From assembly GCF_018812025.1 (NCBI RefSeq), contig NC_063052.1, forward strand, positions 13,250,001 through 13,314,000: a stretch of DNA of 64,000 nt, in the 5' to 3' direction. The notes beneath the pieces were generated by a model, which ran no database searches, had not been told where the DNA came from, and worked only from the letters and a program-made list of their open reading frames with translations. Positions 37,601 through 43,600 of this stretch are shown here, one piece after another. This stretch comes from Megalobrama amblycephala. Taxonomy: Eukaryota > Chordata > Actinopteri > Cypriniformes > Xenocyprididae. Each line of letters begins with the position of its first letter. Position 1 is the stretch's first letter. The position numbers were made by a program, and so were the translations under genes.

Positions 37601-40600
37601 TTAATGTTAACACAGTCAGTTACTTCATTCGCTTATTCATCTATTAAGGTATTTCTACTGTAATAATAGTTATATTACATTAGAGAATAGTTTATAGTAT
37701 TATTAGTTTAACTCACTAACACTATTCTGACTTATGCTGACGTCCACTGGCTGTCAGTGAGCTCTGGCGCCCTCTGCTGAGTGAACATGTATCATACAGG
37801 TTTTTCATGCATAAATGTGCTTGTGATTCCTTCTTTAAAGGTGCCCTAGAATTAAAAATTGAATTTACCTCAGCATAGTTGAATAACAAGAGTTCAGTAC
37901 ATGGAAATGACATACAGTGAGTCTCAAACTCCATTGTTTCCTCCTTCTTATATAAATCTCATTTGTTTAAAAGACCTCCGAAGAACAGGCGAATCTCAAC
38001 ATAACACCGACTGTTGCGTAACAGTCGGGTGTACGCCCCCAATATTTGCATATGCCAGCCCATGTTCCCAACATTATGAAAGGCATTAGACAAGGGCAGC
38101 CAATATTAACGTCTGGATCTGTGCACAGCTGAATCATCAGACTAGGTAAGCAAGCAAGGACAACAGCGAAAAATGGCAGATGGAGCAATAATAACTGACA
38201 TGATTCCATGATAATCATGATATTTTTAGTGATATTTGTAGATTGTCTTTCTAAATGTTTCGTTAGCATGTTGCTAATGTACTGTTAAATGTGGTTAAAG
38301 TTACCATCGTTTCTTAGTGTATTTCACGGAGACAAGAGCCGTCGCTATTTTCATTTATTAAACACTTGCAGTCTGTATAATTTCATAAACACAACTTCAT
38401 TCTTTATAAATCTCTCTAACAGTGTAGCATTAGCCCGTTAGCCACGGAGCACAGCCTCAAATTCACTCAGAATCAAATGTAAACAAATCAAAATAAACAC
38501 TGTACTTACGCGATTAGACATGCTGCATGACGAACACTTTGTAAAGATCCATTTTGAGGGTTATATTAGCTGTTTGAACTTTTTCTTTATGTTGTTTAAG
38601 GCAAGCGCGAGCTCTTGGGGCGGGGAGCACGAGATTTAATGGGCCACACACCCTGAATCGGCTCATTTCTAATTATGCCCCAAAATAGGCAGTTAAAAAA
38701 ATGAATTAAAAAAAATCTATGGGGTATTTTGAGCTGAAACTTCACAGACACATTCAGGGGACACCTTAGACTTATATTACATCTTTTAAAAAAAAAAGTT
38801 CTAGGGCACCTTTAATGTGATTTGTGTATTTGTAAATGTTTTTTTTTTTATATCGCCTGCTTGTGTTGCATTTCTGTCTCCTCTCGTCTCTATCCATGTC
38901 TTTCTTTTTTTCCGTACTCTGTTCTTCCAGAGCGTGCAGCAGGGCTGTGCTGCCGTTTGATTGGCAGCTGTAGACGGGGCATGCCTAAGCTGGCTGACCT
39001 GTCAGTGAAGACTAAGGATGTTTGGGAGATTCCCAGGGAGTCACTTCAGCTCATTAAGAAACTGGGCAATGGCCAGTTTGGTGAAGTGTGGATGGGTAGG
39101 AACCACAAAAAGCATGGGAACATGTTGCAGGAGGAAGGGAACAAACCTCACACAACCTTGCTCACCCTGCCCGTGGTACAGTGCCTTGTAAAAATATTAC
39201 ATTTCTTTTAAAGGTACATTATGTAACTTTGGCCCTCTAGCAGTTAAAAAACAAAACTGCGTGCATTTTGCGGAAGAACATTGTTTTGGTTGTGCTTCGG
39301 TGACTGCGGATGAATATGGTTATCCTGCTGTTTATAAATCATTCACTACTAGGCTTAAGAGATATAACCAGTTTAGATGGAAAGGATCTCAAGCTGACTA
39401 GCTGAAGACGTTACTGTAGCTTTACCCATTAATAGACACAATACTAAGTTCCAGCACAGATGAAATGAGCCTTCACAATAGATAATGCTTTACGATGACC
39501 TCTGTTAGAGAGCTACATTATCTCTTCAATAAAATACCTTAATAAAATACCTAATAATAAAATTAATAAACAGGCTCCCTGTCAACCTTTCTTGCTTGCA
39601 AACCTATGCCACTCCCACACCATACACACGCCAAAGTAGCCAGAGCAACGTTTCTCTGTTAACGGATCTGACGAGACATGCACGGGCAAGTGATGTACGC
39701 AGTTTCCCACGAAAACCATCCCAACAGGTCTAAAATATATTCACTTATAACAGGCTTTAACTTTTTATCTCACAATTCAGACTTTTTTCTCGCAGTTGAG
39801 AGTTTATAGCTCACAATTCTGACTTTTTCTCAGAATTGCAAAATATAAACTCACAATTGCGAGTTATAAAGTCAGAATTGTGAGATATAAACTCGTAATT
39901 GCATGTTATAATGTCCAATTGTGCGTTTTTTCTCAGAATTGCAAGTTTATATCTCAATTCTGACATTATAACTTGCAAATGTGAGTTTATATTTTGCAAT
40001 TCTGAGAAAAAAAGTCAGAATTGTGAGCTATAAACTCGCAATTGTGAGAAAAAAATAGTCCAAATTGTGAGATAAAAAGTTGCAATAACATTTTTTTTTT
40101 TTTTTTTTTATGGCAGAAACAAGCTTCCATTCTATGGTACGCCTGTTATAAGTGAATATGTTTTAGACCTGTCGGGATGGTTTTCGCAGGATACTTCGTA
40201 CATCACTTGCCCATGCGTGTCTCGTCAGATCCGTAAACAGAGAAAAGTTGCTCCGTTATAATGTCCAATTGTTAGGGAAAAAAAGACTGATGTTTTTTCT
40301 CAGAATTTATATCTCACAATTCTGACATTATAACTCGCAATTGCATGTTATAAAGTTAGAATTGTGATATATAAACTCCGAATTCTGAGAAAAAAAGTCA
40401 GAATTACAAGATATAAACTCGCAATTCTGAGAAAAAAGACAGAATTATGAGATATAAAGTCAGAATTGTGTGATATAAACTTTTAAAGTCAGAATTGCAA
40501 CATATAAACTTGTAATTGCCTGTTATAATGTCCAATTGTGAGGGGGAAAAGACTGGTGCTTTTTCTCAGAATTGCAAGTTTATATCTCAATTCTGACTTT

Positions 40601-43600
40601 ATAAAACACAATTCTACTTTATATCTCGCAATTCTGACTTTATAACTCGCAATTCTGAGAAAAAAAGTCAGAATTGTGAGCTATAAACTCGCAATTGTGA
40701 GAAAAAAAAAGTCCAAATTGTGAGATAAAAAGTTGCAATAACATTTTTTATTTTTATTTTTTTATGGCAGAAACAAGCTTCCATTCTATGGTACGCCTGT
40801 TATAAGTGAATATGTTTTAGACCTGTCGGGATGGTTTTCGCAGGATACTTCGTACATCACTTGCCCATGCGTGTCTCGTCAGATCCGTAAACAGAGAAAA
40901 GTTGCTCCGTTATAATGTCCAATTGTAAGGGGAAAAAAGACTGATGTTTTTTCTCAGAATTGGGAGTTTATATCTCACAATTCTGACATTATAACTCGCA
41001 ATTGCATGTTATAAAGTTAGAATTGTGATATATAAACTCCGAATTCTGAGAAAAAAAGTCAGAATTACAAGATATAAACTCGCAATTCTGAGAAAAAAGA
41101 CAGAATTATGAGATATAAACTCGCAATTCTGAGAAAAAAAGTCAGAATTATGAGATATAAAGTCAGAATTGTGTGATATAAACTTTTAAAGTCAGAATTG
41201 CAACATATAAACTTGTAATTGCCTGTTATAATGTCCAATTGTGAGGGGGAAAAGACTGGTGCTTTTTCTCAGAATTGCAAGTTTATATCTCAATTCTGAC
41301 ATTATAACTTGCAAATGTGAATTTATATTTTGCAATTCAGAGAAAAAAAGTCTGAATTGTGAGATAAAAACTTTTAAAGTCAGAATTGCAACATATAAAC
41401 TCGTAATTGCCTGTTATAATGTCCAATTGTGAGGGGGAAAAGACTGAAGCTTTTTCTCAGAATTGAAAGTTTATATCTCAATTCTGACTTTATAAAACAC
41501 AATTCTACTTTATATCTCGCAATTCTGACTTTATAACTCGCAATTCTGAGAAAAAAAGTCAGAATTGTGAGATAAAAACTCGCAATTACCTTTTTTATTT
41601 TTTTAATTTACTGGCAGAAACAAGCTTCCATACCATAAATGAATCAGGGTAAGACAAAAAACACATTTTGGAAGAAGGACTGCTGATGCATTGACAAATT
41701 TTGTTAGTTTTGAACAAAAAAGTTACATATTGTACCTTTAAAGAGCGAGTTCACCCAAAAATAAAAATCATGTACTCACAACCCCCATGTCCTACCAAAC
41801 CTGAATGATTTTTCTTTCTTCTGCAAAACACAAAAGAATATTTTGAGTAATGTCGGTAAGCAAACAGTTTTGGTTACCATTGAATTTTATTGTATGGACA
41901 AAAAACCAGAGACATTTCTCAAAACATCTTCTTTTACGTTCCAATAGAAGAAAGAAAGTCACATAAAACAATATGCGAGGCACTGCGTAGATGCAAGAAT
42001 GGATGTCAGGGAAATAACGTAAGGCTGTGCTGTTTTTGTTCTCTCTCTCTCTGGTCCTTCTAACATTGCATGCCACCCTGTTTCCCTCCTTTTCCATTCC
42101 CCCCTCCCTCTTTCTCTCTTTCAACACTCTTAACAGGTAGTAATGATGGGCTATGTTGCTACTTGACTAAAGCCTGTCCAAATTCCACGCCCCAAACATT
42201 GGGTTTAGGGCGGGACGCCTGGGAGATCGCCCGGGAAACGCTGCAGCTCAACAGGAAGTTGGGTCAGGGTTGTTTTGGCGACGTCTGGATGGGTGAGAGG
42301 GATACGACAGTGTCAATGTCCATGTCAGCATTTGCTAAAGCTACACCCAGTGTTCCCAAAGGATGCATCAGCCTTCTTTAGCACATTTTTCCATGCACGC
42401 TATTTCAGTCCAGTTAAAATGACAAGAGAACATGGAAAGGTGTCCTTTTGTGGGCGATTCACAATGCTGAACAAATGCTGTGATTGACCCTGCTTTGCCA
42501 AGCATCAGTCTGTGGTTCTGAACTGTCAGCTAATCCTCAAATGCACTACGTCAGCTAAACCCCAATAGCATTTTAGCACTGTGTCGATGTTTATTGTGAC
42601 ATTAAAAATGCAACAGCACATTCGCCAAACATTGCATAATTTAAAAAGAAAGTAAAAAAAAAAGTTCAGCTCTTTTCCAGTAGCAGAGTATACAGTTGTC
42701 TGCAGTAATCCCAGCTTCCTGTTGCTTTGGTGTGTGGCCGTATTCCCAGATGCCTCTACATCTGTTTCTCCCTACCCCTTCTCTCATCCCCTAAACATTG
42801 CCATGTCCAAACAATTCTTCCGACTGTGTCTGACACCATTTCTGTGTGTAGGCATGTGGAATGGCACAACTAAAGTTGCAGTCAAAACCCTGAAGCCAGG
42901 TACCATGTCTCCGGAGGCCTTCCTGGACGAGGCCCAGATCATGAAGAGGCTCCGGCATGATAAACTGGTACAGCTGTATGCTGTGGTGTCTGAGGAGCCC
43001 ATCTACATCATCACTGAGTTCATGACTCAAGGTATATACAGTTAAGAGAGTGTTTTCTGAGAGAACGCATGGCCAAAATGTTTATATGCACTACCGTTCA
43101 AAAGTTTGAGGTCGGTTTTTGAAAGAAGTCACCTTGGTTGCATTTGTTTGATAAAAATGTTAAGTAAATAAATGTTATTACAATTTAAAAGAACTGTTTT
43201 CTATGTGAATATATTTTAAAATGTAATTTATTCCTGTGATCAAAGCTGAATTTTCAGCATCATTACTCCAGTCTTCAGTGTCACATGATCCTTCAGAAAT
43301 CATTCTAATATGATGATTTGATTTTTACTTTTTTTTTTTATTGGAAACAAAGAACAAGGGGTCATCATAGGCATTACAAAGTCAAGACAATACAATTTCC
43401 ATGCACTCTTTGGCATGCAATATCTCACATATACTCAATGGTCTGTGTACACAATCCATTTGTGCCAATACTTAATACATTTCTCCTAATTAATTCTAAC
43501 AAAAAATGTAAGTCTCTCCATACAATATATATATTGTTTTCAATTTCCATCCACTGATCTCTTGTTGGAGGATCAATCTGCAGCCATTTACGTGTTATGG

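What the first reader, a model, noticed from the sequence alone, without database searches (positions are those of the whole stretch)
38931..42292. An FGR/YRK-type kinase gene carries both FYN-like alternative exons (7A and 7B)
Seen: two exons, 165 and 156 nt, both phase 1-1, with intact frames and splice sites, each encoding the full SH2-kinase linker plus glycine loop; only one is needed to build a kinase. Known: mutually exclusive exons 7A/7B in FYN make the brain (B) and T-cell (T) isoforms, differing by 3 residues. The same 9-nt difference occurs here. Inference: the alternative pair predates the FYN-FGR split and this fish gene still uses it, giving two FGR isoforms that differ in autoinhibition.
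Basis: partly seen in the sequence, partly recalled or inferred. Interest (0 to 1): 0.88.

Follow-up and report, generated by a model that had tools for sequence, protein, structure and literature searches.

The report
Fish FGR kinase keeps FYN's exon pair
A fish kinase gene (FGR, also called YRK) carries the same pair of swappable exons known from its sister gene FYN, which indicates that this switch is older than the split between the two genes and that mammals' FGR later lost one of the two.

Summary
Each is phase 1-1 and encodes the SH2-kinase linker plus glycine loop. A tree without exon 7 and synteny (SESN2 upstream) make it FGR, called Yrk in some birds, reptiles and fish. The first exon is FYN-7A-like, the second FYN-7B-like. 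In an exon tree all 36 7A segments form one clade, and independent duplication within FGR is rejected (p 9e-6). FGR-class gene models of sharks, rays, gar, teleosts, a newt, lizards and birds carry 7A, 7B or both. A lamprey gene outside the FYN and FGR clades also has both. One echidna and two frog FGR rows show 7B only, as human FGR does in print. Use of both exons is inferred from conservation and annotated isoforms; no reads could be checked. Differing autoinhibition is inferred from FYN. It is a known kind of switch in a second gene.

The parts
34446..34653 (+). FGR exon 2: start codon, MGCACCK myristoyl/palmitoyl-type N-terminus, unique region
   Evidence: N-terminal motif counted
34739..34841 (+). 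FGR exon 3, SH3
35013..35111 (+). FGR exon 4, SH3
35199..35302 (+). FGR exon 5, SH2
36177..36326 (+). FGR exon 6, SH2, ends in phase 1
38931..39095 (+). Alternative exon 7A (165 nt, phase 1-1): linker of 7A type (+3 residues) and NGQFG glycine loop
42137..42292 (+). Alternative exon 7B (156 nt, phase 1-1): SRC/YES-type linker (STPQT) and QGCFG glycine loop with the P-loop cysteine
42852..43031 (+). FGR exon 8, kinase N-lobe
44397..44473 (+). FGR exon 9, kinase
47650..47803 (+). FGR exon 10, catalytic HRDLRAAN and DFG, activation-loop Tyr
48067..48198 (+). FGR exon 11, kinase
51655..51863 (+). FGR exon 12, C-lobe and C-terminal Tyr ([10 protein letters not shown])
38805..38928 (+). AG-free, pyrimidine-rich zone before 7A (124 nt)
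42024..42134 (+). AG-free, pyrimidine-rich zone before 7B (111 nt)
9230..15995 (+). SESN2 exons upstream of FGR (synteny marker); the first piece, 9230-9268, is weak (E 0.047)

Best explanation
This is the FGR (YRK) gene of a cyprinid-type fish. It has kept an ancient tandem pair of alternative exons, 7A and 7B, orthologous to FYN's. Each pre-mRNA is spliced 6-7A-8 or 6-7B-8, giving two kinases of 526 and 523 aa. They share the membrane anchor, SH3, SH2 and C-lobe. They differ in the SH2-kinase linker (3 residues longer in 7A) and in the glycine loop (NGQFG in 7A, QGCFG with the P-loop cysteine in 7B). SHOWN here: the two exons, their frames and splice sites, FGR identity, one common origin with FYN's exons, and conservation of both. 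INFERRED: that both are spliced into RNA in this fish, and that choice is made by regulated recognition of the tracts before the two exons, as reported for FYN. Also INFERRED: that the isoforms differ in SH3-linker autoinhibition and in reactivity of the glycine-loop cysteine. The pair predates the FYN-FGR duplication; mammalian FGR, and possibly frog FGR, later dropped 7A.
For: Intact gene and splice sites. Body tree without exon 7: FGR 22 rows with the window 98/93*, FYN 14 rows 97/94*; without HCK and echidna 98/92* and 100/99*. Exon tree: 36 7A segments one clade 99/96*; 31 7B-class segments 96/79. AU tests reject 7A+7B as a clade within FGR (p 9.2e-6), within FYN (p 4.0e-4) and within cyclostomes (p 6.8e-5). 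FGR-class rows: 52 of 128 hold both exons, 35 only 7A, 39 only 7B, 2 neither. Mean identity among FGR rows 7A 93% (19 rows), 7B 74% (15 rows); FYN 98% and 72%. P-loop NGQFG in 36 of 36 7A; GCF in 31 of 31 7B-class, HCK left out. SESN2 upstream. AG-free zones before 7A and 7B are 124 and 111 nt, the first and third longest of 11 acceptors.
Against: No RNA evidence from this species. Many relatives' models include both exons in one protein (52 of 128 FGR, 57 of 68 FYN), and frame permits it, so strict exclusivity is not shown. Long AG-free zones also precede exons 4 (115 nt) and 8 (100 nt), and the zones before 7A and 7B are alike, whereas in human FYN the tract before 7a is clearly longer than before 7b (PMC5224494, passages); so the FYN asymmetry is not seen here. 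Gene models are predictions, rows are representatives of 90% clusters that can mix isoforms, and the set is biased by the three queries. 7A is too conserved to exclude later gene conversion between FYN and FGR.
Confidence: 0.83

Rival explanations
1. Only one exon is used; the other is a relic or is spliced at trace level.
For: No reads here. Two frog rows and an echidna row show 7B only, so one exon may suffice. 7B diverges faster (74% against 93%).
Against: Both exons in the window have intact frame and sites, and 7A is as conserved as the rest of the protein (paired FGR rows: 7A 93.3%, body 92.9%). Fish rows annotated as separate 7A-only and 7B-only isoforms exist (for example P0037 and P0127); their RNA support was not seen, and members of their clusters were not read.
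Confidence: 0.09
2. FGR's 7A is a recent independent duplication of 7B, or convergent.
For: Tandem exon duplication recurs in other genes (general knowledge).
Against: AU test rejects FGR 7A+7B as one clade, p 9.2e-6. FGR 7A is on average 89% identical to FYN 7A, the window's 7A only 51% to its own 7B. Sharks, rays and bony fish share it.
Confidence: 0.01
3. FGR received 7A from FYN by gene conversion after the split, before jawed vertebrates radiated.
For: 7A evolves so slowly that its tree inside the 7A clade is poorly resolved.
Against: A cyclostome gene outside both clades has 7A and 7B, so the pair existed anyway; FGR 7B rows group apart from FYN 7B, though weakly (80/52).
Confidence: 0.05
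4. Both exons are normally included together, giving a 578-aa kinase with a doubled linker and glycine loop.
For: Frame allows it; 52 of 128 FGR-class rows have both.
Against: A doubled glycine loop would disturb the N-lobe (inference); single-exon rows are more frequent in FGR (74 of 128), though not in FYN (11 of 68); FYN is described as using one at a time (PMC9741552, passages).
Confidence: 0.03

Closest known systems
FYN exons 7A/7B (FynB and FynT)
   Same: Two tandem homologous exons, phase-compatible, covering linker and glycine loop; each window exon falls in the matching FYN exon class.
   Different: The host gene is FGR, by tree and synteny; tissue pattern and mutual exclusivity unknown here.
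Human FGR
   Same: Orthologous gene; its exon is 7B-type (7uy0).
   Different: Human FGR is reported to retain only one of the two exons (PMC9741552, passages); the fish gene has both.
Yrk of birds, reptiles and fish
   Same: Rows named Yrk (for example P0076, P0124, P0130, P0173) fall in the FGR class (P0076 in the tree). A zebrafish yrk reverse primer has its best window match in exon 11, 17 of 20 bases.
   Different: Often treated as a separate kinase; the zebrafish paper calls its role in macrophages poorly known and its expression hardly detected in mouse macrophages (PMC8032883, passages).
Cyclostome 'Fyn-like' gene (P0074, P0182-P0185)
   Same: 7A and 7B exons (P0074 both; P0182-P0184 7A only; P0185 neither).
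   Different: Lies outside FYN and FGR and has the MGCxKSK N-terminus seen in 2 of 3 YES rows.

Membership tests
FYN-type 7A/7B alternative exon pair | Two adjacent homologous exons of 165 and 156 nt, same phase, intact sites | tested here: met
   (FYN exon lengths recalled; 55 and 52 codons fit the FYN models)
FYN-type 7A/7B alternative exon pair | Exons span SH2-kinase linker and glycine loop | tested here: met
FYN-type 7A/7B alternative exon pair | Each exon is orthologous to the matching FYN exon | tested here: met
   exon tree (7A clade 99/96*; FGR 7B with FYN 7B 96/81*); AU test
FYN-type 7A/7B alternative exon pair | Mutually exclusive, tissue-specific use in RNA | not testable with these tools
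   no RNA-seq for this genome; frame does not enforce it
FYN-type 7A/7B alternative exon pair | Isoforms differ in autoinhibition | not testable with these tools
   reported for FYN (PMC3189609, passages); structure prediction was never accepted
FGR (YRK) | Falls in the FGR clade on exons other than 7 | tested here: met
   98/93*; 98/92*
FGR (YRK) | Conserved synteny with SESN2 (FYN is with SESN1) | tested here: met
   sestrin exons 9230-15995 score higher with recalled SESN2 than with recalled SESN1 in 6 of 7 shared pieces, SESN1 higher in one (89.0 against 86.7). One search matches Sestrin-2 only, but the PDB may hold no SESN1, so it does not decide. Human map positions recalled
FYN | Falls in the FYN clade | tested here: not met
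   FYN is 14 other rows, 97/94*

The most novel reading that the evidence does not exclude
The 7A/7B switch is older than the whole vertebrate SrcA family. A single SRC/YES/FYN/FGR ancestor already had both exons, and cyclostomes still do in a gene near YES/SRC. Jawed-vertebrate SRC and YES, then mammalian and perhaps frog FGR, each lost 7A independently and always kept the cysteine-bearing 7B. Non-mammalian FGR would then be a second living copy of the switch, in myeloid cells.
Probability: 0.45. Interest if true: 0.62.

Novelty: new member of a known kind. Interest (0 to 1): 0.5.

Why it matters
FYN's brain/T-cell exon switch is described as FYN's, with FGR, SRC and YES1 each left with one exon (PMC9741552, passages). 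If non-mammalian FGR uses both, the switch dates from before the gene duplication, and zebrafish or chicken FGR becomes a natural test of what 7A and 7B do in blood cells outside FYN. It also suggests that zebrafish 'Yrk', implicated in macrophage recruitment and activation at wounds, is the FGR orthologue, which would link that work to mammalian FGR.

Tried and rejected
Rejected: chance or pseudo-exon (intact frames and sites); the gene being FYN; independent duplication in FGR; cyclostome gene as FYN (p 0.0097) or FGR (p 0.0058) orthologue. Not resolved: cyclostomes with YES+SRC are in the best tree with HCK but not starred (77/96); cyclostomes with FYN+FGR not rejected (p 0.087); with YES alone not rejected (p 0.064; 0.151). 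In the unrooted tree without HCK the cyclostome rows sit on the branch between FYN+FGR (100/96*) and SRC+YES (96/80), so the root decides.

Led nowhere: own-genome search for FYN, SRC and YES paralogues (not completed), structure prediction, tRNA scan (none), two literature searches without hits, the MCB paper on FYN autoinhibition (not held). The zebrafish yrk morpholino has no convincing match in the window (best 18 of 25, at 51975, outside exon 6) and the forward primer none (14 of 20). The first gene model had exon 9 off by one base; corrected. The first tree script lost 8 of 48 rows to a pattern and stopped; one search kept 45 of 48 (dropped: Tachysurus, Huso, Lithobates). On recheck I withdrew a draft argument from cluster sizes: 90% clusters can mix 7A and 7B isoforms. 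I also softened the frog loss; the odds did not need changing.
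Full report
WHAT IS THERE. The + strand gene at 34446-51863 is a complete Src-family kinase: SH3, SH2, linker, kinase, tail tyrosine. Between exon 6 (ends 36326) and exon 8 (starts 42852) lie two homologous exons, 38931-39095 (165 nt) and 42137-42292 (156 nt), with AG/GT sites and phase 1-1. Use of the first gives 526 aa, of the second 523 aa, both 578 aa, neither 471 aa, all in frame.

WHICH EXONS. The first encodes the linker and NGQFG loop of FYN 7A; its best solved match is FYN (2dq7), and it is 86% identical to recalled human FYN. 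The second encodes a SRC/YES/FGR-type linker (STPQT) and QGCFG loop; its best solved matches are SRC, then FGR. In 36 of 36 7A segments of the exon tree the loop is NGQFG; in 31 of 31 7B-class segments (SRC and YES included, HCK left out) it has the cysteine. The two window exons are only 51% identical to each other.

WHICH GENE. I fetched 205 protein rows with three searches (each lists its best 120; rows represent 90% clusters). From these I chose 45 by hand for taxon spread and added the window, SRC (2h8h) and HCK. With exon 7 cut out, 45 of the 48 rows entered a tree (Tachysurus, Huso and Lithobates fell to a pattern). FGR with the window is one side of a branch (22 rows, 98/93*), FYN another (14 rows, 97/94*). 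The window's nearest row is grass carp (99% over 395 columns). Dropping the long HCK and echidna rows leaves the same result (98/92*, 100/99*). Upstream at 9230-15995 lie exons of a sestrin that fits recalled SESN2 better than recalled SESN1 in 6 of 7 shared pieces; three of its exons match Pfam PA26. One exon matches only Sestrin-2 among solved structures, which does not decide, since the PDB may hold no SESN1. From memory, human SESN2 and FGR share 1p35 while SESN1 and FYN share 6q21. Rows named Yrk fall in the FGR class.

HOW OLD. In the exon tree (68 segments, 51 columns, so weakly resolved inside classes) all 36 7A segments form one clade (99/96*) and the 7B, SRC and YES segments another (96/79). 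Holding FGR 7A and 7B together is rejected (p 9.2e-6), as for FYN (4.0e-4) and cyclostomes (6.8e-5). Classifying 204 of the 205 fetched rows by exon-7-free similarity (one, P0189, unclassed): FGR 128 rows, of which 52 have both exons, 35 only 7A, 39 only 7B, 2 neither; FYN 68 rows, 57 both, 10 only 7A, 1 only 7B; cyclostome 5, of which 1 both, 3 only 7A, 1 neither; YES 3, all 7B. The queries were a 7A form, a 7B region and a double-exon lamprey model, so these counts are not frequencies. FGR rows with 7A or both include rays, sharks, gar, Polypterus, sturgeon, eel, carps, percomorphs, a newt, a gecko, an alligator and birds. Of the 39 7B-only rows, three bear the plain name Fgr without an isoform number: two frogs (Lithobates, Mixophyes) and the echidna. 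Because clusters can mix isoforms and lists are capped, this is a hint of loss, not proof.

CYCLOSTOMES. The lamprey model P0074 has both exons; two further lamprey rows and the hagfish row have 7A. They lie outside FYN and FGR: joining them to FYN (p 0.0097) or FGR (p 0.0058) is rejected, again (0.0059, 0.0053). Their N-terminus is MGCxKSK in 5 of 5 rows, as in 2 of 3 YES rows (the third is MGCVRSK), against MG[CS]xxCK in 116 of 128 FGR and 64 of 68 FYN rows. Without HCK they sit on the branch between FYN+FGR (100/96*) and SRC+YES (96/80). With HCK as outgroup the order is open: cyclostomes with YES+SRC are in the best tree but not starred (77/96), and cyclostomes with FYN+FGR are not rejected (p 0.087). 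So the pair predates the FYN-FGR split; whether SRC and YES lost 7A or never had it depends on the root.

HOW IT PROBABLY WORKS. FYN precedent: the exons are spliced mutually exclusively, 7A (FynB) broadly and 7B (FynT) mainly in blood and spleen (PMC9741552, passages; exon names PMC10939263, passages). U2AF represses 7A and activates 7B, with a longer tract before 7A, and PUF60 acts against U2AF (PMC5224494 and PMC7969005, passages). The choice modulates autoinhibition (PMC3189609, passages). Here both exons follow long AG-free pyrimidine-rich zones, 124 and 111 nt, against 15-77 nt for seven other acceptors; exons 4 (115) and 8 (100) are as long. The two zones are alike, so FYN's asymmetry (61 and 35 nt in human) is not seen. 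Neither frame nor intron length (3041 nt) would enforce exclusivity, so regulation by splicing factors is the likeliest means (inference). Both exons are conserved, 7A like the protein body (93%), 7B less (74%); FYN shows the same contrast (98% and 72%). The isoforms should differ in linker-SH3 docking and in the 7B glycine-loop cysteine (inference).

WHAT IS KNOWN. PMC9741552 (passages) states that FGR, SRC, YES1 and FRK each kept one of the two exons; it is about human genes and already implies an ancestral pair. PMC5224494 (passages) cites Picard 2002 for 7A being the younger copy; I did not see that paper. No listing of searches (open-licence PMC only) showed a paper describing both exons in FGR or YRK, but I read passages of only seven papers. 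RefSeq-style models of fish, reptile and bird FGR already list 7A, 7B and double isoforms. In zebrafish, Yrk is expressed in macrophages and neutrophils; knock-down reduced activated macrophages at wounds, and macrophage recruitment at the higher dose only (PMC8032883, passages). That Yrk is this FGR orthologue is my inference: the published reverse primer matches exon 11 at 17 of 20 bases, but the forward primer and morpholino do not match well.

LIMITS. No RNA evidence, no paralogue inventory of the window's own genome (20 genome-search runs unanswered), no structure model. Gene models of other species are predictions.

Noticed in passing
39643-41636: The intron between 7A and 7B holds a nested foldback repeat: 113-nt arms 91% complementary (39643-39755 with 40141-40253 and 40795-40907) and 26 degenerate 60-nt copies. 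It looks like a mobile element, not part of the switch.
   Followed up: partly
9230-15995: SESN2 gene on the + strand upstream of FGR, matching the human 1p35 neighbourhood as I recall it.
   Followed up: yes
L011 3148-8285: Two VWA domains about 7-2 kb before the window, matrilin-like by my reading; matrilin-1 is also on human 1p35 from memory.
   Followed up: partly
1-2576: Long tandem repeat coding for FDLLNRTHDL-type peptides in open frame up to 506 codons, with similar frames in L011 8900-10000; probably satellite.
   Followed up: no
51655-51863: Kinase C-lobe reads DERHTF where SRC has ERPTF; H is also the majority in the 26-row 7A alignment, so it is shared with relatives.
   Followed up: partly
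38931-42292: In both FGR and FYN exon 7B diverges much faster than 7A (74% against 93%, 72% against 98%), although 7B keeps the P-loop cysteine invariantly.
   Followed up: partly
38931-39095: HCK, a SrcB kinase, has the GQFGEVWM loop of 7A without its 3 extra residues. So a 7A-like loop in FRK need not mean that FRK kept exon 7A, as PMC9741552 states.
   Followed up: no
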